Under the pieces are notes generated by a model. That model was given only the letters and a program-made list of their open reading frames with translations. It was not told where the DNA came from and searched no databases. The position numbers were made by a program, and so were the translations under genes. From Caenorhabditis elegans (lineage: Eukaryota > Nematoda > Chromadorea > Rhabditida > Rhabditidae): a stretch of 64,000 bases of DNA. Within the stretch, counting starts at the first letter, position 1; every line of letters begins with the position of its first letter. Shown one piece after another: positions 27,296 through 55,903 of the stretch. The stretch lies in contig NC_003284.9 of the NCBI RefSeq assembly GCF_000002985.6, forward strand, positions 16,244,001 to 16,308,000, given 5' to 3'.

Positions 27296-27367
27296 TTCCG
27301 TTGCGGGGAATCGAACCCCGGCCTTATGGGTGAGAGCCATAAATCCTAACCACTAGACCACAACGGA
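27296..27367 (-). tRNA. tRNA-Glu (anticodon CTC)
   Basis: 72 nt on the minus strand with a seven-pair acceptor stem TCCGTTG/CAACGGA and discriminator A. The D arm has GGTCTAGTGGTTAGGAT, the anticodon loop CTCTCAC gives CTC, and the T arm is GGGGTTCGATTCCCC. Box A and box B are intact, and a T run follows on the minus strand. It looks functional and is the only Glu copy outside the repeated modules. Confidence 0.95.
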
Positions 27368-28379
27368 GACGGGGAAGTTGATGTGTAAGTTTCAATATAT
27401 GTTCAGAGAGAGAAGTCAAAGTGCTGCCTTGCTTTGTAAAAGTTCCAAGTGATTATTTATTAGACAATAACATTGAATTTTAGAAATTAATTGTTCTACT
27501 CCAAAATAGGTAAGCGTGCAACTTAACTGCAGTTATAAGCTTGAATTAACTGAATACTCTTATTATAGATTGAAATTTATTTTCCAACCGATCTGTTTGA
27601 ATTCAAACAAAAAGTTTTGACAGAGAGGTGGTGGATAACTGGATTAAAACGAGACGAGATCGTTAATTCGGAAGGACTAAAGAGGTTATCTTGCAAAGAA
27701 GAACAAGGAGATACATCGGCCTAATGGGACGAATAAATGTTATTGTACGATTCACATCCAAATGAGTCCCTCTTTTCATGTCACTGACCGCGAGATTGCA
27801 GAAAAAAATAAATTGTGTTACTTGAGAACGATTTAGATTTAAAAAAAAGGGAGCCATTGAACTTTCTAACTTTGTCTTCTTATCTTCCGAAATACAATGC
27901 AGCCATTGTGGCGCGCAGTCCCCGAGAAGTTTCCGTTCTAATTCATCATATCTGATAGAAGGTGATGTGAAATGGGGACGACAACACCAATATCACATTA
28001 ACCAATTAAATTAATAATCGGAATAATAAAACATGGAATCATTCATACACAAAACTTCGGAGGGGTTGTTTTATTTTTTTTAAATAGTGTAGGCCTAGCG
28101 GTAATTTTGACTAGTTATTTCTATAATTGATATCAAAATTTCATATTAGAAATAGGTTTTTTTTTAATTCAAAAAAATTAGGACTGATCAAAAATGTTAA
28201 GCATATTCTTGAAATTGATGAATAGCGAAATTATAATAACTGTTAAATTAGTATCTGGTACTGCAATGAAGCATATCTTCAGAAAAGGTAAAATAAAGAT
28301 TATACTTCAGATTTCCATATGAAACATTGATATTTTAATTGTTGAAATAAGAGTCAAAAACCAACGGCAGTTTTTCATC
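27368..28379. other. Intergenic, no gene seen
   Basis: AT-rich DNA between the first tRNA-Glu and the module array. A minus-strand frame near 27663-27857 has no splice signals or recognisable motif. Confidence 0.45.
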
Positions 28380-28414
28380 TCCGTTGTGGTCTAGTGGTTA
28401 GGATTTATGGCTCT
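28380..28414 (+). pseudogene. Truncated tRNA-Glu
   Basis: Matches the first 35 bases of the neighbouring tRNA-Glu genes exactly, through GGTTAGGATTTATGGCTCT. It then jumps to the 3'-flank sequence (GGAATATATTTTTT), so the rest of the anticodon arm and the T arm are deleted. It is dead. Confidence 0.9.
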
Positions 28415-29319
28415 ATTATGGAATATATTTTTTACTTTTGTTTTGATTTAATAAAAGTAAGTTTTGTCTTCAAAAATAAAATGTTTTCTGTTCAAGAAAA
28501 TACGGAAACCCCCGTTTTTCAACACCGGTTTTTATCAAATTCCCATTTTCAAACAGTCCGTTAGCGAAAGTGACTCGGTCGATTTTCAAAATTTTTCACT
28601 TTTTTGTGTCTCCATGAATAGATCTTTAAGGTTTGATCAAAAAATTCAAGTTACTAACAGCCAGTTTTAAAATTCACCTCAAACCGAGGTAATTAAACCA
28701 ACTCGAGTGGTGCGCTGGCTGCGTTTGCGTGCAAAACATAGTGGTCCACGCTAGCCCAGATTTTGTCGGCAGCACATTTCGCATATATCCGCGCTCTCAC
28801 AAGTCCTCCTTAAAGGAGTAAGACTACTAATATGTTCTTACGTAGTGGATGGAGCTTTCCTTTTGTATATATTTATGCACTGCTCCCCACTACTAAATTT
28901 TGGATGGTTCATCGAAAGATGCGCCAAAAATAGATACAAATAAACAAAAGGAAGTCCTGTTTCAATGCTTTATTGAAAAATTCAGTGATTCTTTTTGTAA
29001 TTCAAAGAAAAGATTTTCTTTGATTTTGTGTTTTTTTTTCAAAATTTTTCACTCTCCCCATGAATAGATCTTTAAGGTTTAATCAAAAAATTCGAGTTAC
29101 TGACGGTCAGTTTTAAAATTCACCTCAAACCGAGGTAATTAAACCGACTCGAGTGGTGCGCTGACTGCTATTGCGTGCAAAGCATACTGGCCCACGCTAG
29201 CCCAGATTTTGTCGGCGGCGCATTTTGCATATGTCCGCGCTCTCACAAGTCTTCCTTAAAGGAGTAAGACTGCTAATATGTTCTTACGTAGTGGATGGAG
29301 CTTCCCTTTTGTATATATT

Positions 29320-29860
29320 TATGTACTGCTCCCCACTACTAAATTTTGGATGGCTCATCGAAAGATGCGCCAAAAATAGCTACAAATAAACAAAAGGAAG
29401 TCCTGTTTCAATGCTTTATTGAAACATTTAGTGATTTTTTTTGTAATTCGAAGAAAACATTTTCTTTGATTTTGAGTGTTTCCCAATTAATTGGAAAAAT
29501 TAACCCTTTCACGGACGTGTCTTTATTTTTCGTAAATTTAGTTTCTTTTTCTCTAAAAAACCACCACCTATGGAAAAAATAAGTTTAGTTTACTCGGGTT
29601 TTTCCGTCCATTTTTCCTTATTTTTTTCCTCACGGGGAGGCAAAAAAAAGGAAAACTTTGAAAAATCACGTTTGAGAAATTTCCATTGTGGATAAGTATA
29701 CAAGGATGGAACACTGATATCTTCAATTTCAAAATAAAAGTCATGAACTAATGGCAGTTTCTCTTCTCCGTTGTGGTCTAGTAGTTAGGATTTATGGCTC
29801 TCACCCATAAGGCCGGGGTTCGATTCCCCGCAACGGAATATATTTTTTGTTTTTGTTTCT
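29320..29860 (+). repeat. Inverted segmental duplication, left arm
   Basis: About 540 bp ending with a tRNA-Glu. It matches the reverse complement of 40300-40860 almost base for base over the stretch I compared. The 78-codon frame at 29346-29582 reappears with the same amino acids at 40579-40815, with one silent change (CACCAC against CATCAC) noticed. Confidence 0.85.
29767..29838 (+). tRNA. tRNA-Glu (CTC) with a D-loop change
   Basis: The full 72-nt cloverleaf is present with a perfect acceptor stem and CTC anticodon. The D loop reads CTAGTAGTTAGG rather than CTAGTGGTTAGG. The change removes one of the two invariant D-loop Gs that pair with the T loop and lies inside box A/D-arm. Function is therefore doubtful. 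Confidence 0.8.
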
Positions 29861-30497
29861 GATTTAATAAAATTAATTCTGTCTTCAAAAATAAAATGAT
29901 TCTGCTGTTCAAGAAATACGAATACCCCCGTTCCTTAACACCGATTTTCATCAAATTCCCATTTTTAAACGGTTCGTCCGCGAAAGTGACTTGGTCGGTT
30001 TTCAAATATTTTCACTTTTTTATGTCCCCATGAATAGATCTTTAAGGTTTAACCGAAAAAATTGAGTTACTGGCAGCCAATTGCAAAATTTACCTCAAAC
30101 CGAGGTAATTAAACCGACTCGAGTGGTGCGCTGACTGCTTTTGCGTGCAAAGCATACTGGCCCACGCTAGCCCAAATTTTGTCGGCAGCACATTTCGCAT
30201 ATATCCGCACTCTCACATCTTATTTTTTAAGTAATAAGGGTACTAATATGCTCTTACGTAGTGAATGGAGATTTCCTTTTGTACATAATTATGCACTGCT
30301 CCCCACTACTAAATTTTGGATGGCTCATCAAGAGATGGGCCAAAAATAATTTCAAACTCACTGAAAGTGTCTTTTCTCTATTGAGGAACACAGTATGTTG
30401 TTATTAATAAATTTGCTCACATTCTCCGAAATAAATGTGAATTTGTTTGCTTCTGTTCTTCGAAATAAAGATCAATATATAATGAGTGCTTATCACC

Positions 30498-30569
30498 TCC
30501 GTTGTTGTCTAGTGGTTAGGATTTATGGCTCTCACCCATAAGGCCGGGGTTCGATTCCCCGCAACAAAT
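30498..30569 (+). pseudogene. Decaying tRNA-Glu (CTC)
   Basis: The anticodon and T arms are intact, but the 3' acceptor strand reads CAACAAA instead of CAACGGA, giving two mismatches with TCCGTTG. The junction after the acceptor stem has T for G (TTGTTGTCTAG). It is probably a pseudogene at the decayed end of the module array. Confidence 0.75.
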
Positions 30570-31772
30570 TTTGTATGGCTAATCGAGGGCCAAAAATAAC
30601 TTCCGATTAACTGAAAGTGTCTCTTTAGGATTTGTAAAATTTTAATGTGAGTTTTTCGAAATTCAAAAGAGAACAATTTTCTAAATCAGTTGAAGGAGGA
30701 CTAACGGTTCGGACAATTTTGAACGTATAGACTCAAAATGAGCTCAAATAAACGAATTTCGTAATGAAGCTTCTCAAAAAAAATTCCAAAATTTTGAACC
30801 GCCATAAAAAAGTTTTGAAAATTTTTTGAGCAGTTTCATTACAAAACTCGTTCATTTGAGCTTATTTTGGGTCCATACGTTCAAAATCATCCGAACCGTT
30901 AGTCCTCCTTTAAGGACATATCTCTATTTTAAAATTATTTATCATGTTTCTCATTAAAATCAATATGTTTTTGGGAAAAGTTCAATTTTTAAAGTCACCG
31001 AAAAATGAAAACGAACATAATTTTGGAGCCACATATGATATATGGGTCTTCGAAAAACTTTCTGTTTTAGAGTTCCTATTTTTGAACAAGAACCCATTTT
31101 GAGGTACACAGTATGCTGTAAATGTTAATTTTGCTTACATTCTCCGAAATAGATGTGAATTTGTTTTCTTCTGTTTTTTGAAATAAAAATCAATATATAA
31201 TTACCGCTATATGACCGCCATAAATAGTTTTGTAAAATCATTAATAAAAATTTCATTACCAAATTTGTTCCTTTCAACAAGTATTGATTTTATACGTTCA
31301 GAATACCCCGAGATTTCCCGTTAGTCATTGTTTCATTTATTCCAGAGTTGACCTGATTGAACGCACGCAACGCACTTTTTCTCTCTCGCCACACTTTGGA
31401 AGTGAGAGACGCAGCAAGAGATGTCTTCTCTGCCGTGCAGTGTTGTCGTGAAAAGGACGACAGAAAAAAGAGTGTGTGGAGGTGAGAGGGTGGGAGGGGT
31501 GTGAGACGGTTGTCCGTAAACACTCGCGCAAAAACGCGGGAAAATTTTTCTGGAGGAGGCCGTGCTGCACAGGTAAAAACCTTTTTAATTCGATCAAAAC
31601 AATTTTATAAATTTGTTCGATTGGATTTTTCACGGAGATTTTTCCGCGGTGCTTTTATTTTTTTTTTGATTTGCTGTTATTGTTTGAACTGACTTCTAAA
31701 TTTTGATCTCTTTTACTTTTCGATTCTATTTCCCTTAAATGACAATTATAACTTTGGAACATTTTCAGCAGT
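30570..31772. other. sdc-1 upstream region
   Basis: Holds the inverted repeat at 30693-30910 and a fragment of the same family near 31210-31330. From about 31350 the base composition rises in GC, with CTCTC-type tracts and CGCGCAAAAACGCGGG. A donor (CACAG|GTAAAAAC at 31573) and an acceptor (31761-31768, five bases before the sdc-1 ATG) suggest a non-coding first exon ending at 31572. Confidence 0.5.
30693..30910. mobile_element. AAGGAGGACTAACGG inverted-repeat element
   Basis: Terminal repeats AAGGAGGACTAACGGTTCGG and CCGAACCGTTAGTCCTCCTT are perfect over 20 bases. Internal halves are complementary (AAATGAGCTCAAAT with ATTTGAGCTTATTTT). A partial relative follows at about 31210-31330 (TTTCCCGTTAGTCA). 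Confidence 0.85.
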
Positions 31773-34700
31773 ATGTCGGATGAAGAAGATATAGATGAAA
31801 GCTTTGAAATCGAAGAGGACGGAATTTCAATCACAGATGCCAGAGGGTAAGTTGTTGTTGTTTTTTTTTTTTTTTTTTTTATTTCCTTGGTGGCTTGTCC
31901 CAATGTCCAGTAGGAAAAAAGGACATGTATCATTATAAAACTGTTTAAAAATTTTCACATTTCCAAAGCTTTCCAAGCCCTAATTAATCCAACAAATTCT
32001 TGTTTAGAAACAGTCTGAAAGCGCAACAAATTGCTGGTAAAGAACGAAATTTGGATCCAGAAGCCGATGATTTGGAGGTAGTCGTCAATTTCTACGAAGC
32101 AGGCGACGGAACATTCCAACTACAACTGCCCAAACTAACAGCTGTGAAACCAGTGGATAAAGTCAATGATGTACTGGACTTTATCAATTTTGACAAGAAA
32201 GTATGCGATGGAATCCATTCATCAATCAAATTAGTTTCACGTAAGTTTAACTGCATGGTAACTAGAATTAATTCGTATTGTTGGTTGCGGGACAGTAGTA
32301 GATTTTTGCCAAAACCAAAAATTAATTTAACCGGGTTGAAACATTTTTGAAAAATATTTTTACAAAGTTTCCAGATGTTGAGAATTGAAAAATTTACCTA
32401 CGATTTTTTTTTCACAAAACCTACGATTTAAAATAATTTTTTTTAAAGCTATTTGGAGTTAGGGTGTCTCATTTCAGTGTGATCTACTTAAATCTACACA
32501 CAATGCGGGAGTTGAAACGCAGAGTTCTCAACCAATTTTGCATAGTTAAGAACGTGTTGACGTCACACTTTTTGGACAAAAAATTCCCGTATTTTTTTTA
32601 GATCAAACCGTGATGGGGCAGCTTGACACTACGTGTATACATAAAATCCATTATTGGGCCTTACTTTACTATATAATTTTCAGAACGAGATCAGACGGGA
32701 CCAGCACCGTTTCCGAAGCATAAGCTGACGTGCGCCCATTGCGACTGGTCGTTCGACAATGTGATGAAGCTTGTCCGTCACCGAGGTGTTCACAAGAATG
32801 TGGGAGTCTACATGTGTCAAGTGTGCCTCACACTGTTTGGACACACCTATAATCTGTTTATGCATTGGCGGACATCGTGTAGCCAGACATCGACAACTGC
32901 CACGGATATCGAGATACAAGTAAGCACAAGTTGGTATTTTGAAACTAATGAATCCCCAAGCTCCAGAAAGCAGAAACGCCGTACCTTCATCGCAATGTGC
33001 TCAATGTTTTGGGCTCACTGAACCGAGCGTCGCAATACTACTGCACTGGTGGTTATGTATTTCTGCCGTCGGATTGGTGCATCACAAATAAGGAAATTGT
33101 TATGGAAAAGGATCATATGTCGTCGTGTCATTTATGTCACCTGCCTGTACCAAATAAATTTCTCGAAGCTCACGGAAATGTGCATCGGGGGCGATTTCGA
33201 ATCGATGGACGTATCTACGGCGACTACTTTTGTCATATTTGTGGAACAGTTTTCATGTAGGTTTTTCGACATTTTTTTTCAAAAAATTGAAAGAACACTG
33301 AAATTTCAGAGAACAAGATAATCTATTCAAGCATTGGCGTTTGCATTGTGAAGAGGTTATTGCCTACACACCAGTCGACCAATATCTATCAAATACGGAG
33401 CTCGCCACACTCGCTTGGCTCGTCCTTCAAACGACAATCTCACAAGCCGATATTGAATGCTTGAGGGTCAGCTCGTCGCTGATCACTGAAAAATTGGCAA
33501 AAGAGCACGCGGAGAGACACGGAATCGCCAATAGTATGCACAAGTATTATCACTTTCCACAGGAGATTTGGCCCCTCAAAACGTTTGTCAATTTGGATTT
33601 GGTTAATGATGCGATTCCGATTTCAGGAGAAAATTCATTTGTGAGCACTTTTTTTCCATTTTACTTTGAGATTTGTATTATTTTCTAGCAAAACATTATT
33701 GGCGGGTCGTTTTAGAACCTATTTTGGAGGCAGGTAGGCACGTTTTCAGGGCCTACCGAAAATAGCAGATTCTGAGCTACGTTGTACATACCTACTTGCC
33801 TACTTTCCTTTCTGCCTACCAAAATTTTTATATTTTTTTTCACTGAAATTCAATCTTTTTTTTCAGAAGATAAAAGATCCCAAACGCCCAGTGCACATAA
33901 TGAACTTGCTCGCTACGGCGTGTCCGGGCTTTTACGCAACAGGAAAGACGTTCAACATGATTTGCAGTACGAAAAAATCGGAATCAGACACGAAAAAGGT
34001 GTATCGCGTCATATTGAGATATACGACAGAGGGATCCGTTATTCAATCGGTAATTTGATTTGTGCTTTTTTTCGAAAAATTTTTTTCAGATTTTTCAGCA
34101 CTTTTAGCTAGACGTTTGGGTATTAGCCAGTTTTAAGAAACTTAGCAATGATCAAACTTTTAATTCAAAATTTTGAATAATGAGAAATTTATTGGAAAGC
34201 TTTATGATAATCCAAATTCACTTTTTTTTTCTTCCAGTACGATTTCACGGCTCGCTCATTCCCCAAACTCCGCGTGGACTCGGAAACGCCAGAAGGTGTT
34301 TTTAGCCATCCGCTGGCCGATTTCAATGTGGAATCGAACGAGGCGATCGTGTGTCACAAGTGTGATAGTAAAAAGTTGACAATCACGTTCTCGACGGAAG
34401 TACGGTTGAAGTATCATCTGCTTCGACATTCGGAGTCACGAAAAGACGGTTATCATTGTGCGATTTGCAAGATTATGTGAGTTTGTATTGAATAAAACAA
34501 TGTTGATTAGTTTGAGAGTGAGAATTGGATTTTAAAAATCTTCACAATTTTTCTTTATTTTTTGACCACTTCCGAATTGGCTAAGTAATTCCAACAGACG
34601 GTAAACGTTTGCATAAATGAAAGTTAATTTCAGAGTATACAATCGTAGTCATGAGGAGCACTGGATCAATGATTGTATTCCGCTCCAGAAATTGTATAGA

Positions 34701-37700
34701 GATCAAAAGGACCGAGAGTGCTTCGACGCAGAATTTGCTGCAAAATGTGCGAGCATCATAAAAAAGCTCAGAATACGAACATTGATTCGATGGAAGGAAC
34801 GAGCGAACGAGGACTGGGTGGAGACGAAGCAGACGCCTGATCGTATCGGAGAAGATTTTGCTATAAAATTCCAAGTTGGTACCACTGCTCTGAAGACGCT
34901 GATGGCCGGGCTCGAGGAGCATTATAAAAATGCTCAGGCTAGACATGAGGCGTATAAGTACAGCGAGGAAAACTTTTTGCCGCCACTTTCGACGCCGGTC
35001 GTTGTATGCTTTCATTGTGGTAAGTGGCTCACCGTAATAGGAATGAAGAAAAATACAAAAAAAAGTTATTCGATCTTTTTTGTGAAAATCTGAAAGTTTA
35101 ATTCTCTTCCTCTCTCTCTTTTTTAGTTTCTCCTCAAAACACCTTTTTCAGGCACCCGCTGTCATTATACGCTACTTCACGACCACCTTGATTATTGCCA
35201 CTATTGGCCGCGTAACAAACGATTAGTCAATGAAGAATTTCATAAATGGAAGAAGAACGGCTGTCGAAATACGTGGCGAGTTATGGTAAGGGAGATTATT
35301 TGTGTTCTAGATATTATTAATTTTAATGAATTTAATGAAAATGATTGAAAACAATTTTTTAAAGTGGTGGGAGAAAGGTGTATGCATTTTTTTGGTTTTG
35401 CCACAGCTTTTAATTTTTCAATTATGTGCATATGTTTGAAGGCGGTTAATATTCAAAACAGGGGTGGGCGGCAATTGCCGTTCTGCAAATTGATTTGCCG
35501 ACAAATTCTGCAAATCGGCAAATTACCGGTTTTCCGATTTGCCGGAAATTTTTAATTCCGGCGATTTTCCAGTTTGCCGATTTGCAGGAAATTCTTATTT
35601 TTGCCAAATTGCCGGTTTGCCGTTTGCCGGATATCAGATTTGCCGGAAATGTTTAGAGGGATTTTTCATAAGACGGAAACACTTAAAACTGTCTTTTCGA
35701 AAATTTTTCCGTTTTTTCTATACATTTTCATAGAATTTGCTTACTTTTCAAAATAAATGTAAGAAGATCATAGGATGCGTTTAATTTTGCCATTTGAAAT
35801 TGAAATTCTGAAATTTCCGAAAGAATAAGTGCGAAACCACAGTTTGCCAAAATTTTTTCGCAAATTCGACAAATCGGCAATTTGCCGATTTGCCGACGTG
35901 CCGGAAGTTTCAATTCCGGCAATTTTCCGGCGTGCCGATTTGCCGGAAAAAATTGTTTGCCGCACACCCCTGATTCAAAAGCTTAGCTCTTTTTTTGGTT
36001 AACAAACTTAAATATATATTTTTTCAGAAAAGTGTAGCTGAAGCAATGCAAATTGAAGTGCCGTTCATATCTGAGGAGCAATACTCAAAGGTACAGTTTT
36101 TGGGGAATAATTTATCAGTATAATGAACAGAAAATAAAAAAAATAGCAAAAAATTCTGAGGTTCATATTTTTCAATGATCATTTCCAGATACTCGACTAC
36201 CACACCTACTTTTGCAACGACACACGCTACAAGGTTCAGGACTCAATCAACAATTGGAACGATTGCTCAACAATTCGAGACGTTGATTTGTCCGAAAAAC
36301 TTTCAGTTGCTGAAATTGTGCAAAAGGGCGAGGACTCAGTGATGGCTCCAGAACCTGATATAATCAAAAATGTTTACTTTCCGTCTGCTCGTATTATTAC
36401 AGATAATATGCTGTTGCGAATGACAGAGGTATAGAATTTTTTGATCATTTTTTAAAATAGTTTTTTTTAGATAGACGATACGATTTTAAATATTTTTCTA
36501 GTAACAATTGGTAAATTCTGAGATTATAGCGGAATTAAACCTTTTTTTTTAAATTTCCTAAGAAACTTTTTAAGAAGGCACACTATGAAATTTACCTATT
36601 TGGTGCCTATCTGAGTAAAATGAAACCAAAAAAATATATACATATACACATTTCAGATAAACTTGAATGATGTCGTGCAGCGAGACCCAATCACCAAAGA
36701 GGAACTAACGGGAAAATTCAAGGAAGTTCAAGACGAGCAAGACGCGATTCTGTTTGGTGACTACCGTGCTGTTTTGCGATCGAAGGGTATTATGGTCAAT
36801 TCGATTTCGGATTTTGTTGCTCCTCCAGATGAGCTTGCGAAAGCAAAAGCATCCCAGGAGTCTGCTGGTCAAGAAAGTGTGGATCATAGGAATCGAAGGG
36901 AACGAGAATTTATTCAACAGTATATGGGTAAAGATCTGGCACTCGAGGCGGCCGCCCGCGAAAATGGGAGACTCGTCGAGGTTGACGAAGAGGCGGAAGA
37001 TTATGAACTGACTCCGAAGGAGCTCAACGCTCGAAGACTCGTCGAACGGAATCGTCACCGAGAGATGTGCAAAACGAGGTGTGAGCATGGCGAGTATGAC
37101 TATGAAAAGTTCAAGGCGAGGCAAGTGCCCATTAATCCGGCAAAAATGAAGGAGCGGAAATATCTGACTCGTGTGGTACACGAGAGCGGCCCGGATGATG
37201 ATGTGTGCCCAGATGAGCCGGAGAATAACATCATCGCGTTCTCACCAAAATATGAAAATTCGCTCAGCGACTTTCGCATAAGTGCAATTGGTTTCCGCGA
37301 AAAGTATTTGGCGGACGATAAAAAGAAGAGAAATGGAATTCCGATTCGAAAAATGACTGAGGCTCAGAAAGGTGTTGCGCTAGACTACGATACGTTGATG
37401 GCGCGACACGGAGGTCGTCCCGACGTGATAATGAACCCGGCCGGAACTGTTTTTGTGGGAGGATTTGTGTTCGATCGGAAACCGACGTGCCAGGATAACA
37501 TGCAGACTGTTTATGTTCTTCGTAATGGCTATGTGAGTTTGAAAAGTTTAAGTAATGTTGATTTTGTTCCCCGGTTTTTTGAGACAAAATTTGACTGTCA
37601 CGAGGGACAGGCAGAGAAGTATAATAGAGAAGTGAAGAAAAGCGGAATATTGAGCCTCGATATAAGACAGTCCCTCCTAACCACGTGGTGTCAGACTGCT

Positions 37701-38300
37701 CCGTTGCGGTTTGACCTACAAAAAATGCGGGAACGTTTTGCCCAAAAAATGTGACGTCAGCACGTTCTGAACCATGCGAGATCAGTTGAGCCCAACTGTG
37801 CTTCTCTACTCCCGCATTTTTTGTAGATCTGCGTAGATCAATCCGAAGTGAGACGCTCTGACACCTCGTGCCTAACTATGTAGTTCTGAATTTTGTGAAC
37901 ATTTAGATTTTTCACACAATTTTTTTTCAGGCACACCGGTACCGAATTTATCACTGCGAAGACACGAATGGCATTTACAAATTTGTTTGGCCGCAGGAGC
38001 AAAGTTTTGACCCCGATTCGCTTGCAAAAAGTGCTCGAGTCAGAATGGTCAAGCAAGTCAAATGTATGTAATTTGTTAGAAATTCACCTTTTTTAATTTA
38101 ACATTTGTACAGCACCTGAACACATGATCCATCACATTGAAGAAATTGATGAGTCTATTGGACATAATTACCGACTGAATAGAAAACGGCGAAACTCGGA
38201 AACACGTGAACACGAGCTCATTGAACTCGATACGGACGACCTGAATGAGCCGAGTACTAGTGATGGAAGATATAGTTTTGGGCATCACGGATATCGTTGA
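31773..38300 (+). CDS. sdc-1: SDC-1, zinc-finger dosage-compensation and sex-determination protein
   Basis: Fourteen coding exons join in phase: 31773-31846, 32008-32240, 32684-32919, 32961-33256, 33310-33640, 33867-34049, 34238-34476, 34634-35019, 35152-35285, 36028-36090, 36189-36428, 36657-37532, 37931-38063 and 38113-38300. The product is 1203 aa, the size recalled for SDC-1 of C. elegans. An acceptor six bases further on (32967) would give 1201 aa. The start is MSDEEDIDESFEIEEDG. Zinc-finger-like motifs come in sets: CAHCDWSF...HRGVH and CQVCLTLF...HWRTSC (about 119-168), CHLCH...HGNVH and CHICGTVF...HWRLHC (about 237-293), then CHKC...HLLRH, CAICKI...HWINDC and CFHCGTRC...HLDYC further on. 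The long exon 36657-37532 is charged and finger-free. In hermaphrodites SDC-1 joins SDC-2, SDC-3 and condensin subunits on X and represses her-1. Weak AATAAA is at 38667-38672. Confidence 0.9.
32455..32635. mobile_element. AATGCGGGA/TGACGTCA inverted-repeat element, copy 1
   Basis: CAATGCGGGAGTTGAAACGC...GAACGTGTTGACGTCACAC...AATTCCCGTATTTTTT, with ends that pair (GTGATCTACTTAAAT with TTTAGATCAAACCG). It lies in sdc-1 intron 2. Related copies are at 37667-37868 (also in sdc-1) and 51178-51340. Confidence 0.75.
35462..35972. repeat. CGGCAAATTGCCGG-type repeat, copy 3
   Basis: GGGGTGGGCGGCAATTGCCG at the left and TTTGCCGCACACCCCTG at the right form the ends, with many CGGCAAAT/ATTTGCCG units inside. 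It fills most of the 742-bp sdc-1 intron 35286-36027 and is the most complete of the copies. Confidence 0.75.
37667..37868. mobile_element. AATGCGGGA/TGACGTCA inverted-repeat element, copy 2
   Basis: Left half CGGTTTGACCTACAAAAAATG and right half CATTTTTTGTAGATCTGCG are complementary around GTGACGTCAGCACGTTCTG. It lies in the sdc-1 intron 37533-37930 and ends about 60 bp before the next exon. Confidence 0.8.
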
Positions 38301-38666
38301 CATGATTGTATTACGAAATATTTAATTTGAATCTCAACTCCTTTCTACGATCTTTTTTCTTTTACGTGTGGAAAAATATCATAAAATTTGATCTTTCATT
38401 AAAAACTCTATTTTTCTTTTTAAAACTCAAGCTATAAACATTATTTTTCATTTTGAGTTCCTAAAAACTTTTTTTGAATTTTTCAATTATTTTTGAAATT
38501 AAGCTTGAAAATCATGATTATGAATCAAGAAAAAAAGTATAGCACAGGGTTTGTGAGTCTGTGGCGCCGCTTGATGCGTGTCTTATTGTATAATTAGTAC
38601 TAAACGTGGTGAGTGGATATTTCAGGGAACATTTTTGTACAACTAACTCATTGCTCTTAGAGTTTC

Positions 38667-38715
38667 AATAAAGTTAAGAATCTGCCGGAAAACTTACACA
38701 GTTTACTTTTTTATT
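38667..38715. terminator. Facing poly(A) signals of convergent genes
   Basis: AATAAA on the plus strand at 38667-38672 (candidate end of sdc-1) and AATAAA on the minus strand at 38710-38715 (about 90 bases after the stop at 38806 of the facing gene). If both are used, the two mature 3' UTRs overlap. Confidence 0.5.
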
Positions 38716-38805
38716 GTGAATCCTTCCAAAAAATCAAGTAAAGCACTTGAAAAAAGCAGAAGCAGAATCAATTGAGCAGGCAGGAAAACACTTATCATAA
38801 ATTTC

Positions 38806-41800
38806 TTAATGATAAGAGTCCACAAGCATTCCTATGTTGGTAACGTTGACTTTCCAATTGCTAAGTTCGACATGGCTGGAAATCAAATTTTTGTAAATGT
38901 AGATTGCCTAAAAGTAGCTTACTTTTCTGTTACGGGAACCTTCTTGATAATTCTTTGGACTTTCCGAATGGTGTTGTTTAGACTGGAGCAGTTGTGGGTT
39001 ATAAACATAGTGATGTCATAATAGTCCTGGAGCAGTTTAAAATAATTTTTTATAAAATGATATTTATTTTGGAGACCTACGCTGAAAATACCATCTCCGT
39101 CTTCTTCGCCTTTAAGATCGAAATCGGACTCCTGTTCGCTAGTACAACGGGCATCTTTGTAATCTAGTACATCTTTTTTGCTGAAAAAGGCAATTAGAAA
39201 CATGTGGAGAATATGTGTTGGTAACTTGCTCAGAGTGAATATTAAAAAGTATGTGGCTTTAGTCTTTCAGAAACAGTAAATGTATTTTTATTTAAAACCA
39301 AAGTTGTAATGTTTCTTCTGAGTTTTAAATTGTTGCAGTTGGCCAAATTGGCCAATTTTATCGAAAAAAATTCGGTATTTTGGAAAAGGCTCGACCAAAC
39401 TATTCTTAAAATTTTTAAGTTTTTAATTCCACTCACAACAAGTAGTCAGGGTCATGAAAGACATATTTTCAAATTCTGCTGGTGGAAATTCGTTTTCAGT
39501 AGGGCGTATTTAAACAGTCAAACCCTCAGAAAATAGGCGGAGCCGAGTTTTTAGATCTCCTAGATATTTCGTGGCATTTCAAAGCAGCCAGTTGAAAAAA
39601 ATGGATACCTCTATTTTTCACCCGTTTCTCTCAAAGATTTCTCAGATAAATATATATTGAAGAATGTGAAATGTAAAAGTTGATGAATGTTTTTGAGAAC
39701 CTACCGAAGTCTTTTTTTGAAATGGCCGGAAGAAAAGACATTTGTCAACGAGAGCTCATCAATTACGTCTTATGTGTGCAGGAGATTAAGAAAAATCTGC
39801 ACATGCCTCTCTATCCCTCAAAAATGTGGCTCCGGGGGGTGTTCAAAACTTTTTTAAAGTACCGTCAAGTGAGAGGTCATAGTTGATAACATAACTTCTC
39901 ACATTTTCAGAGTTCTTTTTTTTTATGTAACATTTTTATAGCACCTGAACAAGGGGTCCATCATACTGAAGAGCCTGATGAACGATATTTTTTATGTTAC
40001 GTGCTAAAAATATCACTAAAAAAAAAAAATCTTCTACTAAAAACTAATATTTTTAAATTCAAGTTATAAGCATTGTTTCTCATTTTAATTTCCTAAAAAC
40101 TTTCTTTATGTCGTTCTAATTTGAAAAAGAGAAAAAATGTTTTCAAAAACACATTAAAAATAGGCACTTATTTATTTTTGTCCAGATGTTGGTATAATAA
40201 GGGAATGTGAAAGTTCACAATACAAACGCTTCACGTTACAAGTACAGAAACGTTGAAAATGTGGAAAGCCGCTCACATGTTTTCTCAATGTTATTTATTT
40301 ACAAATCAAGCAAAAAAATATATTCCGTTGCGGGGAATCGAACCCCGGCCTTATGGGTGAGAGCCATAAATCCTAACCACTAGACCACAACGGAGAAGAG
40401 AAACTGCCATTAGTTCATGACTTTTATTTTGAAATTGAAGATATCAGTGTTCCATCCTTGTATACTTATCCACAATGGAAATTTCTCAAACGTGATTTTT
40501 CAAAGTTGTCCTTTTTTTTGCCTCCCCGTGAGGAAAAAAATAAGGAAAAATGGACGGAAAAACCCGAGTAAACTAAACTTATTTTTTCCATAGGTGATGG
40601 TTTTTTAGAGAAAAAGAAACTAAATTTACGAAAAATAAAGACACGTCCGTGAAAGGGTTAATTTTTCCAATTAATTGGGAAACACTCAAAATCAAAGAAA
40701 ATGTTTTCTTCGAATTACAAAAAAAATCACTAAATGTTTCAATAAAGCATTGAAACAGGACTTCCTTTTGTTTATTTGTAGCTATTTTTGGCGCATCTTT
40801 CGATGAGCCATCCAAAATTTAGTAGTGGGGAGCAGTACATAAATATATACAAAAGGGAAGCTCCATCCACTACGTAAGAACATATTAGCAGTCTTACTCC
40901 TTTAAGGAAGACTTGTGAGAGCGCGGACATATGCAAAATGCGCCGCCGACAAAATCTGGGCTAGCGTGGGCCAGTATGCTTTGCACGCAAAAGCAGTCAA
41001 CGCACCACTCGAGTCGGTTTAATTACTCCCGGTCTGAGGTGAATTTTGCAATTGGCTGCCAGTAACTCAATTTTTTCGGTTAAACCTTAAAGATCTATTC
41101 ATGGGGACATAAAAAAGTGAAAAATTTTGAAAAACGACCGAGTCACTTTCGCGAACTGACCGTTTAAAAATCGGAATTTGATGAAAAGCGGTGTTAAAAA
41201 ACGGGAGTTTCCGTATTTCCAGAACAGCAAAAAACATTTTATTTTTGAAAACAAAGCTAACTTTTATTGAACCAAAACAAAAGTAAAAAATATATTCCGT
41301 TGCGGGGAATCGAACCCCGGCCTTATGGGTGAGAGCCATAAATCCTAACCACTAGACCACAACGGAGATGGAGAAATGCCATTGGTTCATGACTTTTATT
41401 TTGAAATTGAAGATATCACTGATTCATATGGGAGGCTGAAGTATGCTCTTTATTTTACCTTTTTATAAAATATACTTCAAAACTTTAAATGTTTTCACTG
41501 TTAAAATTGTTACATAATTGAAAATGTAACGTAACATATTTAAAACTAGAAATCTAGAAAAATTATTGCAAGTACGAAACTGTTGTTAAAGCCGATAAAA
41601 AAGTTATTGCACATTTATTGGAAATTTGTGAAGCAAAATGTATAGCTCAATCATGAAGGCAATTGACAGAAATGATGACTTTCAGGAATGAACTTTAGCA
41701 AGATGGGGAAGATCACAGTTACGTAAAATCTACACGACCAATATTCTCACTGGAGACAAAAAACAACTAGAAACGGGGATCTTCAAATAAACAACAAAAA

Positions 41801-44800
41801 AAAAGAAAATGCGTTGGTATTAGAGATTTTTATACATTAAAAAAAATACTTTCAACAACAGAGAACAATGAAAAATTGCAATGATAAAATTTTTTGGATT
41901 GTGAAGATTTTTGAATTTTTTTGAATATTATAAAAACAAAGAAATTTTTTAAAAATGAGAAGAGAAAAACACTGAAAGGAAATTAACCAGACTAGTAATT
42001 GAAATGACGACGAAACGTTGAGAAATGAAGTGCTAAAACAAAAGGAGGCAGCAATGAATGTCTATGAATTTGTCATATTATTGGCGTTGAAAATACGGAA
42101 GAGATGAGCATTTGGTAGTTTTTTAGAACTGTTTAGCTCGTAGCACTTTGACAACTTCTGTGTCGTCTCGGTAGAACATGCTGGAAATTTATGAATTGAA
42201 TGTTTTGTAGTAGGTTTTGATTTTATTCATTTTATAATTAATCCAAGAAGTAACTTTAAAAATGGATTAAAAACCCCCAAAACAAGTCAGGTAGAGGTGG
42301 AGCCTATTATTGATTTTTCTTTTACTTGAAAATTTTTTAAGATATCCGGGGCAAATTTTCTTGATTTTTTTTTGTTTTCAGTACAGGGTGGTCCATTATT
42401 ATACAGGGTGGCCCATAATTATACAGGGTGGTCCATAACTATACAGGGTGGTCCATAATTATACAGGGTGGTCCATAATTGAACAGGGTGGTTCATAATT
42501 ATACAGGGTGGTCCATAATTATACAGGGTGGTCCATTATCATAATTATGGACCACCCTGTATTTCCCCACATCCACTACTCATTTTTCAAGCCAAAACAT
42601 ATTTAAAAAACTTACCATCGTCTTGTTGGAGGTCTTGGTGGTGGTTCTTCAAATTCCTCCTTTTTGCCATCATCACAGTTTCTATCATCTTTAGTGTCCT
42701 GGCAAAGTTGCTCTAGGATTTGGAAATGACGCTGGCGGCGGTTATGGCTGGATTCCATTTTTTGGCGAGTGTTTTGGGCTTTCTGAAAGCTTGTACTTGT
42801 ATAATTAAAGAAAAAGAGAGCAAACAGTAAGAGAAGTGTTTAATTTCAAGAACATAAAATCTGATCTAGACAAGGGGGTTTTATAAGGATGACAGCATAC
42901 AGAAATCAACACCAGTGAGACCACGTGCAGGTGGAATTCGACCGACTTCCAGCCCCCATTTCTTGCATTATTTTACGAGGTTTCATCAAAATGGGGTACT
43001 AGCACCTGATCTCATCACCTCATCGTTTTCTGTGTTTTTTATGACGTTCAGCGAATCGCTTGCAATGAGGAAGCAAGAATTGGACCCAACGCAAAAAAAG
43101 AAATTAAAGAATATATTTTGTAAAATTATGATGAAAAATTTCATTAGGAACTTTTTTATATTTTGATAGATATGAAAGTAAGGAACCGACTTTGGTAACC
43201 ACCCAAAACGTGACAATTCAAAGAACGTAGTGTTTTTATTGTTGTTTTAGTGCGGTGATGACATCAAGGACTTTAGGACACGAAAAAATTACGTCAGATG
43301 ATGGTAGCTTCTAGATTCTTCAGAAATGGTCACTGTTTATTTAGGATTTGTTATCCAAAAACAGTTTTAGTAGTTTTCTTGTTTTGCCAGTTAAATAGAA
43401 CTATTTAACTGGCAAAACAAAACAACTACTAAAACTGTTTTTGGATAACAAATCCTAAATAAATCCTAATTTAATTGGCACTGTGATTTTTAATTTCCTA
43501 AAGAATTCGGTACAACTTGGGGAGCATTAAAGGTGGACTACACCCTGTGGAGAAATTGCTTTAAAACATGCCTATGGGGCCACATTGACCAAATATCATG
43601 ATAAAAAAAATTAAAAAAATTTTCTAGATTTTATATGATTTTTTTGAAAATTGAAAAAATCTCAGTTTTCCCCTAATTATATTTGAATTTCCGCCAATTG
43701 AATTCGTTCGTTGGAGCGCGCTTGCATTATTTTCATTAATTTTTTATTAATTATTTTCATTATTTCACTGATTTTCTTCATTTTTTGGGGGTTTTAATCG
43801 GAAAATAAATGAAATAAACAGGAATATCCAAAATTTTTATTGAAAAGTAACTGACAATGCCTAAAACTCTGAATAAGACTAATTTCAGGCTCGTCGTCGT
43901 CGGATCGCATAATTTCAAAGTTTTACGCACTTTCAACGACTTTTTAACAAACATTCTGCATTTATCTTGTTTATTTCATTTATTTTCCGATAAAAAAACC
44001 CCAAAAAATGAATAAAATCAGTGAAATAATGACAATAAATTAAAAAAAAATAATCAAAATGCAAATGCAAGCGCGCTCCAACGAACGAATTCAATTGGCG
44101 GAAATTCAAATATAATTAGGGGAAAACTGAGATTTTTTCAATTTTCAAAAAATCATATAAAATCTAGAAAATTTTTTTAATTTTTTTAATCATGATATTC
44201 GGTCATTGTGACCCCGTAGGCGTGTTTTAAAACAATTTCCCCACAGGGTGTAGTCCACTTTAAGTGGAAAACTTTTGATTTTTTGTTGCAATGATTTTGA
44301 AATTAGTAATGAGACTAGATTTACGAGTTTAAATGAGATTGCAGAACAAAAGATAAATTCAAGAAAATTTGATACTGTGCCGTAAGAGGCTAGATAAAAT
44401 AGACGAAAGTGTCTTTTTTTTTTGAAATTTTTTTCAGACGAAACTTTCAAAAACTCCCACCCGAATGTCTACAAAAAATCTAATTGAAAACTGATGAAAT
44501 CCATTTTACTCCCAAAATAAATAGTCTTATTGAAAAACTTTCAGTTTGCAATCCGAGCACACGTATAAACAAATAGACACCACCATCGCACAAAATATGA
44601 AAAAACTCCGTTTTTTTCGGACTGAAACCCTCATGGTTGTGTTTCAATTTTTGATTTTTCAAAATTTGAAAAAGATATAAAATTGAGAAAACAACATAAA
44701 AAACGAAGATGCATGTTGTTAATCTCGCTGTTCAAAATAAATGGCTTAACACTGGTGGGGATCAGTGAGCACATGATTGAAAAAAATGTGAAAATTTAGA

Positions 44801-51820: not shown

Positions 51821-53139
51821 TTAAAGGAGGTGTAGTTGAATTTTTTTATTGCTTTATTACACTAAAAATTGTCTGAAAACACCGAATTTAATAATGAAAC
51901 TTTTTGAAATCTTCTCAAAAAAAGTTATGGCGGCTTGAAAAATGCCCTAAAATTAGTTAAGATTTGGAATTTGACCGTCTTGTCAATGTCACAGCGGCTG
52001 GAAACAATTTTTTTGAAATCACCTTCAAATTTTGAGTATACCGTGCAATTATCTTGCGTTTTAAACTCGATTTAGGTACTTTAAATTCATTTACGAGAAG
52101 AGATTAAAGCAAATTTTTTACCAAATCTCTTCGTCCATCGACTTTAATATACCTAAATCGAGTCGAAAACGCAAGATGATAAAATGATTCTGAAAAATTT
52201 GACGGTAATTTCACACCAAAAAAAAATTATTTCCAACCGCTGTGACATTGACAAGTTGGGCAAATTTCACATTTTAAGTAATTTTAGGCCATTTTTTGAG
52301 CTGTCATAACTCTTTTTTGAGAAGTTTTTAAAGGTGGACTACACCCTGTGGGGAAATTGCTTTAAACACGCCTATGGGGTCACAATGACCGAATATCATG
52401 ATAAAAAATTTTTATAGATTTTTTATGATTTTTTGAAAATTGAAAAAATCTCAGTTTTCCCCTAATTCCTTTTTGAATTTCCGCCAATTGAACTCGTTTG
52501 TTGGAGCGCGCTTGCATTATTTTCGTTAATTTTTTTTTATTTATTTTTATTATTTCACTGATTTTTTCATTTTTTGAGGTTTTTAATCGGAAAATGAAAG
52601 AAATAAACAAGATAAATGCAGAATGTTTGTTAAAAAGTCGTTGAAAATGCGTGAAGCATTGAAATTATGCGATCCGACGACGACAAACCTGAAATTAGTA
52701 TTATTTAGAGTTTTAGGCATTTTCAGTTACTTTCTAATAAACATTTTGCATTTTTCTTGTTTATTTCTTTCATTTTCCGATGGAAAACGCCCAAAAAATG
52801 GAAAAATCAGTGATATAATGAAAATAAATAAAAATAATTAATGAAAATAATGCAAGCGCGCTCCAACGAACAAGTTCAATTGGCGGAAATTCAAAAAGAA
52901 ATTAGGGGAAAACTGAGATTTTTTTCAATTTTCAAAAAATCATATAAAATTTAGAAAAATTTTTAAAATTTTTTTTTATCATGATATTCGGTCATTGTGA
53001 CCCCACAGGCGTGTTTTAAAGCAATTTCTCCACAGGTGTCCACCTTTAAGAAGCTTCATTACGAAATTCTGTGTTTTCAGACAATGCTGAGTATAATAAA
53101 GCAAGAAACTTTTTTTTTAATTGACAACACCACCTTTAA
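51821..53139. mobile_element. Outer inverted-repeat element, interrupted by another element
   Basis: Ends TTAAAGGAGGTGTAGTTGAA and CAACACCACCTTTAA. The arms contain GTCAATGTCACAGCGGCTGG and CCGCTGTGACATTGACAAG. The right arm breaks at AACTCTTTTTTGAGAAGTTTT (52330) and resumes at AGAAGCTTCATTACGAAATTC (53049), corresponding to GAAACTTTTTGAAATCTTCTC in the left arm. The 719 bp between is a separate element. Confidence 0.85.
52330..53048. mobile_element. AGGTGGACTACACCCTGTGG element, copy 2 (nested)
   Basis: Starts AAAGGTGGACTACACCCTGTG and ends CACAGGTGTCCACCTTTAAG. The interior matches 43529-44262 throughout, including GTTGGAGCGCGCTTGCATT, its complement, and a GATCCGACGACGACAA centre in the opposite orientation. 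It is inserted in the right arm of the element at 51821-53139. Confidence 0.9.
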
Positions 53140-54340: not shown

Positions 54341-54413
54341 GGTCTCGTGGTGTAGTGGTTATCACATCTGTCTAACACACAGAAGGTCGGCGGTTCGATC
54401 CCGCCCGAGATCA
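54341..54413 (+). tRNA. tRNA-Val (anticodon AAC), copy 1
   Basis: 73 nt: acceptor stem GGTCTCG/CGAGATC with discriminator A, D arm GTGTAGTGGTTATCAC, anticodon loop with CTAACAC (AAC) on a perfect CTGT/ACAG stem, and T arm GGCGGTTCGATCCCGCC. It is followed by CCTGTC and a T run as pol III terminator. Confidence 0.95.
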
Positions 54414-55392
54414 CCTGTCTTTTTTTCTTTTTTTTTTAATGTTTTTGTTGTGAGCAATATACAAATGAATGTTAAATAGAGAAGGATAAATATTTTATTG
54501 CCGACTCACTACACTGTAGCCAGTGAAAACATTAAATGCTATGTTTTAAATAGTGTATCTAAATACTTTCGATGTGGATCACGTTTTATCCTAAATAACA
54601 TAAAATTATGTGCATAATCAAAATTAATTCCAAAATTTTTTAATTTCAGTTTCTCAAAAAAAAAAACAGACGATAAATTATATGATATGGTTTGAAAGTA
54701 CAAAGAGAAAAAATGTTTTGTTATGAGACATCTTTGCAGTTTTGAAAAATTGAATTTTGATGTCAGTTACTTTACAATCAAAAATAGAAGTATTTATTGA
54801 TAATTGTGACATAAAAATAGTATCTGAAAATGCTCGTTTTTCGAGAGAAAAATATATTTTGTTGTGAAACATTTTTTTGTAATTTTATGAAAAAACTGGG
54901 TTTAGAAATTTTTGACTTTTTAAATGGTTTATTGAATGAAATATACGATATCTTTCAATTTTTATGTGTTGGGCAAGAAAACAAATTACAGTAGAAATGA
55001 GTCCTTTCATCGTTTTTTATTTCAAAATGTTTGAGCGCGAAAATTTTTGAACTGCCGAATTAATTGGCAAAAATGCCATTATATCAAACACCAGCCGTGG
55101 ATCGCACCTACGGCGCGGCCCCCGACTTTTTTGAGAAAACACATTAGATATACGGTGTCTATCGCGGACCTCGATCGGTGTCTGCTGCGCATTTAGCATA
55201 AGGTTTCCCAAAATTTCGTTGCTCTGATCAGAGATCAAACTACATAGGGACAGAAGGACACGCGCTTTATATATAGTAAATGATTTTAAAACACGGCAAA
55301 GATTTTCCATTTCCCATTGGTGAAGCGATGCTGTTGAGTTTGACAGAATTCTACCTAAATTAATGAACCTAAATTAAACATCCCCCCCCAGC
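54414..55392. other. Spacer between tRNA-Val copies 1 and 2
   Basis: The 3' flank of copy 1 (GCAATATACAAATGAATG..., AAATAGAGAAGGA) is repeated after copy 3 (56175-56230), and the AAAATGTTTTGTTATGAGAC region resembles 56429-56460. The tRNA flanks were therefore duplicated with the genes. A minus-strand frame at 55017-55310 has no gene-like features. Confidence 0.5.
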
Positions 55393-55465
55393 GGTCTCGT
55401 GGTGTAGTGGTTATCACATCTGTCTAACACACAGAAGGTCGGCGGTTCGATCCCGCCCGAGATCA
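55393..55465 (+). tRNA. tRNA-Val (anticodon AAC), copy 2
   Basis: Identical over all 73 bases to copy 1, with CCTGTC and TTTTTT after it. Confidence 0.95.
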
Positions 55466-55565
55466 CCTGTCTTTTTTCGATCGAAAATTTTGATCAGTCA
55501 CATTGCTTCATAATTTCATTCCGAACATTCTTTCAATATAAATACAAAAGTTACTCACGGCAAGT

Positions 55566-55640
55566 CAAAACTGATAGGCGGGACCGAGTTTTGCTTGCTC
55601 ATTGTCGTTCGTTTATTTGCCAACATGTCTTGGCAGGCTT
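55566..55640. repeat. AAAACTGATAG...CCAACATGTCTT repeat, copy 1
   Basis: AAAACTGATAGGCGG, TTGCTTGCTCA, GTCGTTCGTTTATTTGCCAAC and ATGTCTTGGCA in this order. The same order recurs at 60571-60700 and 62940-63080. It is non-coding and lies about 270 bp upstream of the potassium channel start. Confidence 0.7.
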
Positions 55641-55903
55641 TTATATTTTATGAGAAAAATTGTTCGTATTTTTAAACATTTTCTTTAAGGTTACCTAGAA
55701 CTTCTGCCAAGAATTTGATTCTAGGGTTTGTAAAATAATAATTTTGCTTGGTTAATAATGTATTCATGTATCAAATATAGAAATTTTCTAAATAGTTTTT
55801 TAAAATTTTCTGATCAAACTGCTAGCCGCAAAAACTTACTTTTTAATGTAAAATCATTTTTGATATTATGATTACTCTGAGAAAATTTCAGACATCAGAG
55901 AGC

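What the first reader, a model, noticed from the sequence alone, without database searches (positions are those of the whole stretch)
29320..40870. Near-identical inverted tRNA-Glu modules bracket sdc-1
The arms at 29320-29860 (plus) and 40300-40860 (minus) are almost base-for-base complementary, each with a tRNA-Glu, and lie on either side of the dosage-compensation gene sdc-1. Recombination between such arms would invert the ~11-kb segment between them, and the similarity itself suggests recent copying or gene conversion. The right arm lies in an intron of the facing gene, so an inversion would separate that gene's distal 3' exons from the rest.
Basis: partly seen in the sequence, partly recalled or inferred. 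Interest (0 to 1): 0.7.

Follow-up and report, generated by a model that had tools for sequence, protein, structure and literature searches.

The report
Gene-converted inverted tRNA/SL1-like modules around sdc-1
Two nearly identical, oppositely oriented stretches of worm X-chromosome DNA on either side of sdc-1 each carry a glutamate tRNA gene and a decayed relative of the SL1 splice-leader gene, most likely alike because one was recently copied over the other; whether the segment between them ever flips is untested.

Summary
Identity then drops, in register, to 83-87% on the outer side; on the inner side homology ends 10 bp past the tRNA. The right array is a mosaic of left copies L3 and L2 (0 of 20,000 permutations as extreme). 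A second inverted pair of the same element, 15.5 kb apart on X, has a 216-bp exact tract between diverged flanks. Ectopic gene conversion fits best and has C. elegans precedents. Inversion of sdc-1 is possible but untested. The intron claim is not supported, though not excluded. Eight were found, all on X, outside the chromosome V SL1 array (searches give lower bounds). They keep leader, GT donor and upstream bases but lose the SL1 fold, and mostly the Sm site, so are probably pseudogenes; three share one 22-nt variant leader.

The parts
29135..29848 (+). left arm, near-identical tract (5 mismatches of 714 to the right arm)
40313..41026 (-). right arm, near-identical tract, inverted
29849..40312 (.). 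10,464-bp segment between the tracts, holding the sdc-1-like gene
29767..29838 (+). tRNA-Glu(CTC) of the left arm; A for G at 29783 in the D loop
40323..40394 (-). tRNA-Glu(CTC) of the right arm; same sequence as 27296 and 41295
41295..41366 (-). second right-array tRNA-Glu(CTC)
30498..30569 (+). later left-array tRNA-Glu; changed base at position 9 and altered 3' acceptor end; Rfam 49.2 bits against 65.3 for intact copies
28379..28413 (+). truncated tRNA-Glu (5' half) of the first left unit
   Evidence: not called by ARAGORN
27296..27367 (-). further tRNA-Glu(CTC) left of the array, intact
28595..28699 (-). SL1-RNA-like locus L1; 22-nt leader at 28678-28699 followed by a GT donor (3' end approximate)
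29041..29145 (-). SL1-RNA-like locus L2; leader 29124-29145; the near-identical tract begins inside it (3' end approximate)
30011..30115 (-). SL1-RNA-like locus L3; leader 30094-30115 (3' end approximate)
41016..41120 (+). SL1-RNA-like locus of the right array; leader is 23 nt with an extra base and substitutions (3' end approximate)
28583..29035 (+). first copy of a local direct duplication (second copy 29036-29481, 91.6%)
41048..41115 (-). stretch of the right array identical to L3 at 15 consecutive polymorphic sites: a second exchange tract
31988..37754 (+). exon-like ORFs of the bracketed zinc-finger gene (sdc-1 by recall)
42123..42758 (-). 3' end of the facing gene: exon 42758-42616, terminal exon 42180-42123 with stop (manual reading)

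Best explanation
The two arms are inverted copies of a compound module: a tRNA-Glu(CTC) gene plus, on the opposite strand, a locus derived from an SL1 splice-leader RNA gene. The module belongs to an old repeat family that I found only on X. SHOWN: near identity over 714 bp, a sharp in-register fall in identity on the outer side, mosaic make-up of the right array, a second inverted pair with a two-sided exact tract, and SL1 homology. INFERRED: the arms were made alike by ectopic gene conversion (break repair templated by the inverted copy on the same or the sister chromatid), last about 0.7-1.2 million generations ago; the repeat supplies the homology and no special function is needed. Inversion of the segment is a possible rare crossover outcome of the same process, not demonstrated.
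For: Mosaic: right 41134-41027 is 94.9% like L3 and 86-87% like L1 and L2 (99 columns); right 40944-40752 is 100% like L2, 94.8% like L1 and 76.2% like L3 (193 columns). The longest L2=R run spans 51 of 76 polymorphic sites and the longest L3=R run 15; 0 of 20,000 permutations reach either (the L1=R run of 17 sites, P 0.00075, lies where L1 equals L2). Over the same 375 columns the distant inverted copy is closer to L2 (96.0%) than the adjacent direct duplicate L1 is (93.6%). Replicate: X 4410194-4410409 (+) against 4394691-4394476 (-) is exact for 216 bp, with 79% then 92% on one side and 71% on the other, while a third copy is 80.6% in the same span; longest run 42 of 166 variable sites, 0 of 20,000 permutations. 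SL1: the 10 chromosome V matches of the 4.41 Mb element (E 5.6e-11) all overlap the 10 places that the Rfam SL1 model marks, and leader, donor and upstream bases align. Age: 3/678 to 5/714 divided by twice about 3e-9 per site per generation (derived from the abstract of PMC13322394). Tract length lies inside the range of 12-2,958 bp given for C. elegans pairs (PMC3966223, Table 1).
Against: The sdc-1 tract has a diverged homologous flank on one side only; on the inner side homology ends 10 bp past the tRNA, so for this pair alone a young duplication that ended there is not excluded. 714 bp is long against the usual 50-200 bp, so several tracts may be merged. The review reports that conversion falls with distance over 1-8 kb and may favour same-orientation pairs (PMC3966223, passages); this pair is inverted and 10.5 kb apart. 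Permutation treats sites as exchangeable. The left tRNA's base change must post-date the exchange or have been spared. Only 1 of 4 genome searches with element copies reached the V SL1 genes.
Confidence: 0.8

Rival explanations
1. Recent inverted duplication: a 0.7-kb piece of the left array was copied into the right array in one event, without repeated conversion.
For: Homology on the inner side stops 10 bp after the tRNA. A paper on human duplicates states that the youngest C. elegans duplicates tend to be adjacent and inverted (PMC4546093, passages).
Against: The right array continues in register on the outer side with an older copy at 83-88% and carries a separate L3-like stretch; a second inverted pair shows a tract with diverged homologous flanks on both sides.
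Confidence: 0.15
2. The segment with sdc-1 flips: crossovers between the arms have inverted it, and both orientations exist.
For: The geometry permits it: 714 bp at 99.3% in inverted orientation, 10.5 kb apart. The L3-like outer part of the right array fits an earlier state in which L3 and the right array were neighbours.
Against: Upstream of that 100 bp the right array is no closer to L3 (84.8%) than to L1 (86.3%) over 277 columns, as conversion alone would give. No population data were available. Long-read work saw 0 inversions in 6 mutation-accumulation lines, though recall was low and 64 were called in one wild isolate (PMC13322394, passages).
Confidence: 0.07
3. Selection keeps the arms alike because the whole module is functional.
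For: Between four independent copies the leader (mean 81.5%), the first 60 bases upstream (80.2%) and a block 181-245 bases upstream (84.5%) are more alike than the SL body (69.7%).
Against: The near-identical tract includes a spacer found at full length in no other copy and begins abruptly; the equivalent part of L3 is 76%. All three + strand tRNA copies on the left carry changes.
Confidence: 0.03

Closest known systems
Ectopic gene conversion between inverted C. elegans paralogues (hsp16 modules, as described in PMC3966223, passages)
   Same: Inverted modules on one chromosome whose near identity was attributed to conversion rather than young duplication.
   Different: Here the copies are RNA-gene modules 10.5 kb apart with an unrelated gene between; the hsp16 modules are 416 bp apart and protein-coding.
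Concerted evolution of tRNA genes by gene conversion (PMC5745555, passages)
   Same: tRNA copies kept alike by conversion.
   Different: Here about 640 bp of non-tRNA flank is homogenised too.
SL1 RNA genes of the 5S rDNA array (RF00198; PMC1657053 and PMC8961926, passages)
   Same: Homologous leader, GT donor, start of the SL body and bases just upstream.
   Different: X copies are dispersed, have a tRNA-Glu in the fetched locus at three of five places, vary in the leader, and lose the SL1 fold and mostly the Sm site at the SL1 position.
sls-1 and sls-2 sets recovered from RNA-seq (SLIDR, PMC7986045, passages; SLFinder, PMC7346339, passages)
   Same: Scans for SL genes in C. elegans; SLFinder mentions five SL copies not annotated before, whose places I did not see.
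   Different: No X-linked SL1-like family is described in the passages I saw. SLIDR's Sm filter of 40-55 nt would not have fitted L1, whose T-run starts about 32 nt after the donor (my count).

Membership tests
Gene-converted inverted repeat pair | High identity in a bounded tract with lower identity in homologous flanks | tested here: met
   On the outer side only for the sdc-1 pair; on both sides for the 4.39/4.41 Mb pair.
Gene-converted inverted repeat pair | Non-random clustering of shared variants (mosaic) | tested here: met
   0 of 20,000 permutations reach the observed run, for L2-R and for L3-R.
Invertible segment (orientation polymorphism) | Both orientations present in a population | not testable with these tools
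   Only one assembly of the species is held; one search says it has no relatives here.
Functional tRNA-Glu(CTC) gene | Intact cloverleaf | tested here: met
   Right-array copies and 27296: 65.3 bits, identical sequence; left + strand copies 63.5 and 49.2 bits or truncated.
SL1 RNA gene | 22-nt leader followed by a GT donor | tested here: met
   L1, L2, L3: identical 22-nt variant leader plus GT, 19 of 22 bases as in SL1. Of the other five copies one has 22 nt (17.343 Mb), the rest 21 or 23.
SL1 RNA gene | SL RNA fold with a strong 3' stem | tested here: not met
   V SL1 folds at z -2.17 with a 7-bp 3' stem; the 8 X copies have z from -0.91 to 1.47 and the stem is gone or reduced to 3-4 pairs. 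A consensus fold keeps a 12-pair 5' part, 2 pairs with two-sided changes.
SL1 RNA gene | Sm site at the SL1 position | tested here: not met
   By eye: kept only in the 17.343 Mb copy; L1 and L2 have an AATTTTTTG about 12 nt earlier.
SL1 RNA gene | Match to RF00198 | tested here: inconclusive
   No X match among those listed, but true SL1 itself scores 49.7 against a cut-off of 75, and only 50 of 48,231 candidates were scored.
SL1 RNA gene | Leader found on mRNAs | not testable with these tools
   No RNA reads available.

The most novel reading that the evidence does not exclude
An X-linked family of SL1-derived genes, three beside sdc-1, makes a variant splice leader (the same 22-nt sequence in L1, L2 and L3) that is trans-spliced to some mRNAs, and exchange between inverted copies keeps it alive; C. 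elegans would then have a second, sex-chromosome-borne SL1-type source outside the chromosome V array.
Probability: 0.06. Interest if true: 0.75.

Novelty: new member of a known kind. Interest (0 to 1): 0.4.

Why it matters
It is a clean natural case of conversion between inverted copies 10.5 kb apart, with a replicate 15.5 kb apart from the same family, in a worm where the effect of orientation on conversion is stated to be undetermined (PMC3966223, passages). It marks an exact place to look for recurrent inversion of a dosage-compensation gene. The SL1-like loci suggest that SL1-type sequence exists outside the 5S array and spread on X; a 2006 paper describes the C. elegans SL1 family as a monomorphic tandem array (PMC1657053, passages).

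Tried and rejected
A structured RNA covering the whole element: the consensus fold shows 2 of 69 pairs with a two-sided change, and a chosen subset of 43 pairs shows 0 and is indistinguishable from its shuffles (93.4% of cells paired against 93.2%). Not supported.

tRNA conservation alone as the cause of similarity: rejected, since in four other tRNA-Glu clusters the inverted similarity hardly exceeds the tRNA or is a low-identity palindrome. My first version of that comparison dropped symmetric alignments and showed none for two clusters; one search replaces it.

DUF870: one minus-strand ORF inside the segment (38919-39266) has a sub-threshold hit (20.2 bits, cut-off 27.1); left open. A search for its first exon gave no clear signal-peptide exon.

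Rfam at gathering or lax thresholds did not reveal the SL1-like loci; they came out of genome searches with a distant copy and recognition of the leader from memory, then checked.

Literature: 0 papers hold both sdc-1 and F52E10.1. Searches on inverted repeats, conversion and tRNA genes (one search found 0) and on inversions in long-read work gave no paper on this locus in their listings. One search for variant, dispersed or pseudogene SL1 terms, including the variant leader string, gave 5 papers, none holding that string. Passages of PMC9071541, PMC3857721 and PMC2888827 were seen and bear little on the case, except that PMC2888827 reports a tail-to-tail bias of antiparallel tRNA pairs in Caenorhabditis.

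Full report
What is there. The window is contig 6, 16,244,001-16,308,000, of a seven-contig genome with C. elegans chromosome lengths (names by recall). The left array (28267-30569) holds, on the + strand, a truncated tRNA-Glu, a tRNA-Glu at 29767 and another at 30498; the right array (40313-41479) holds tRNA-Glu at 40323 and 41295 on the minus strand; one more lies at 27296. Between them lies a + strand gene with a zinc-finger piece, taken to be sdc-1.

Arm identity. The near-identical tract is 29135-29848 against 41026-40313, with 5 mismatches in 714 bp and 3 in the inner 678. On the outer side the alignment goes on in register at 83-87%. On the inner side homology ends 10 bp after the tRNA. 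With the outer flank the pair scores 95.8% over 848 columns.

How it became so alike. The right array is a mosaic. In 41134-41027 it is 94.9% like the third left copy and 86-87% like the others; in 40944-40752 it is 100% like the second left copy. The runs of shared variants exceed all of 20,000 permutations (site list). Over the same 375 columns L2 is closer to the inverted copy 10.5 kb away (96.0%) than to its direct neighbour L1 (93.6%). This is what ectopic gene conversion leaves. A plain recent duplication would not by itself give the in-register older flank and the L3-like piece.

A replicate. The same element occurs at X 4.3947 Mb (-) and 4.4100 Mb (+), an inverted pair with 15.5 kb between the tracts. 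They share an exact 216-bp tract; before it identity is 79% then 92%, after it 71%, and a third copy (7.906 Mb) is 80.6% like both in the tract. ARAGORN finds no tRNA in the 3.2-kb locus of the 4.3947 Mb copy, so a tRNA in both arms is not needed.

Background. In 208 kb of X around the site, 5 inverted pairs of at least 200 bp and 90% exist; three have spacers of 79-453 bp and two are parts of this structure. Four tRNA-Glu clusters elsewhere with inverted pairs show similarity over 86-120 bp, or as a 79% palindrome of 328 columns.

Age. With 3/678 to 5/714 differences and a rate of about 3e-9 per site per generation (the abstract of PMC13322394, gives 0.03 structural mutations per genome and generation as about a tenth of the SNV rate; divided over 1e8 bases) the last exchange is about 0.7-1.2 million generations old. 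With only 3-5 differences the error is several-fold.

What the arms are made of. Asking the genome with the 4.41 Mb copy of the element brought 10 matches on chromosome V at 70% identity over 160 bp (E 5.6e-11); three other copies used as queries did not reach them. The Rfam SL1 model marks the same 10 places. Aligning the V unit with the X copies shows in common the 22-nt leader, the GT donor, the next 15 or so bases, a GGGGAGAC-like end and about 30 bases upstream. The X elements therefore contain SL1-RNA-like loci, on the strand opposite to the tRNA. Eight are seen, all on X: four here and one each at 4.3947, 4.4100, 7.906 and 17.343 Mb; the searches give lower bounds. L1, L2 and L3 have an identical 22-nt leader that differs from SL1 at 3 positions; genome-wide with up to 2 mismatches this variant occurs only at those three and at 17.343 Mb. 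The right copy has a 23-nt, altered leader.

Are they functional? Probably not. True SL1 folds better than its shuffles (z -2.17) with a 7-bp 3' stem; the eight X copies do not (z -0.91 to 1.47), and that stem is gone or reduced to 3-4 pairs. The Sm site at the SL1 position is kept only in the 17.343 Mb copy (by eye). RNA-seq pipelines report ten functional sls-1 genes and no X family in the passages I saw (PMC7986045); SLFinder mentions five SL copies not annotated before, places not seen (PMC7346339). In favour of some constraint: between four independent copies the leader (81.5%), the 60 bases upstream (80.2%) and a block 181-245 bases upstream (84.5%) are more alike than the SL body (69.7%); bases 121-180 upstream are 58.7%.

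tRNA state. The two right-array tRNAs and the one at 27296 are identical; the three + strand left copies are truncated, changed in the D loop, and broken at the acceptor end, respectively. The left array looks to be decaying.

The intron claim. On the minus strand an exon at 42758-42616 joins in frame to 42180-42123, which ends in a stop; an AATAAA follows near 41620 (manual reading). That puts the right arm downstream of the facing gene. The same donor is also in phase with an acceptor at 39180, so an isoform reaching across the arm cannot be excluded without transcripts.

Inversion. The geometry allows crossover between the arms, which would turn about 10.5 kb including about 2.1 kb in front of the first sdc-1-like ORF listed (31988), so the gene would probably move whole. 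Nothing in the sequence shows that it has happened; conversion alone explains the mosaic. Population data would decide it.

Noticed in passing
G000:C6:4394476-4394691 (-) and 4410194-4410409 (+) (L014, L005): Second inverted pair of the same SL1-like element, 15.5 kb apart, with a 216-bp exact tract and diverged flanks on both sides.
   Followed up: yes
28595-28699, 29041-29145, 30011-30115 (-), 41016-41120 (+); L005, L013, L014, L016: Eight SL1-RNA-like loci, all on X, outside the chromosome V SL1 array; three share a 22-nt variant leader.
   Followed up: yes
G000:C5:17118155-17131160: Chromosome V SL1 genes score 49.7 bits against an Rfam RF00198 cut-off of 75, so the model misses C. elegans SL1 at its own threshold.
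   Followed up: no
42382-42541, with inverted continuation to about 42561: 20-bp tandem repeat (ACAGGGTGGTCCATAATTAT type), about 8 copies, between the two last exons read for the facing gene, ending in its own reverse complement.
   Followed up: no
43527-44263 and 52328-53049: Two copies (88% in inverted alignment) of a roughly 740-bp element; the first is self-complementary at 86.5%.
   Followed up: no
43336-43463 and 30690-30913: Long hairpins (128 bp at 95%, 224 bp at 83%) that attract miRNA-family hits below cut-off.
   Followed up: no
54341-56663: Four tRNA-Val(AAC) genes in one orientation.
   Followed up: no
29150-29245 and the homologous part of other copies: Bases upstream of the SL1-like loci keep GCGC words in several copies (by eye); a paper reports a GCGC motif and tRNA genes at condensin sites (PMC3983662, passages). 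Any link is speculation.
   Followed up: no
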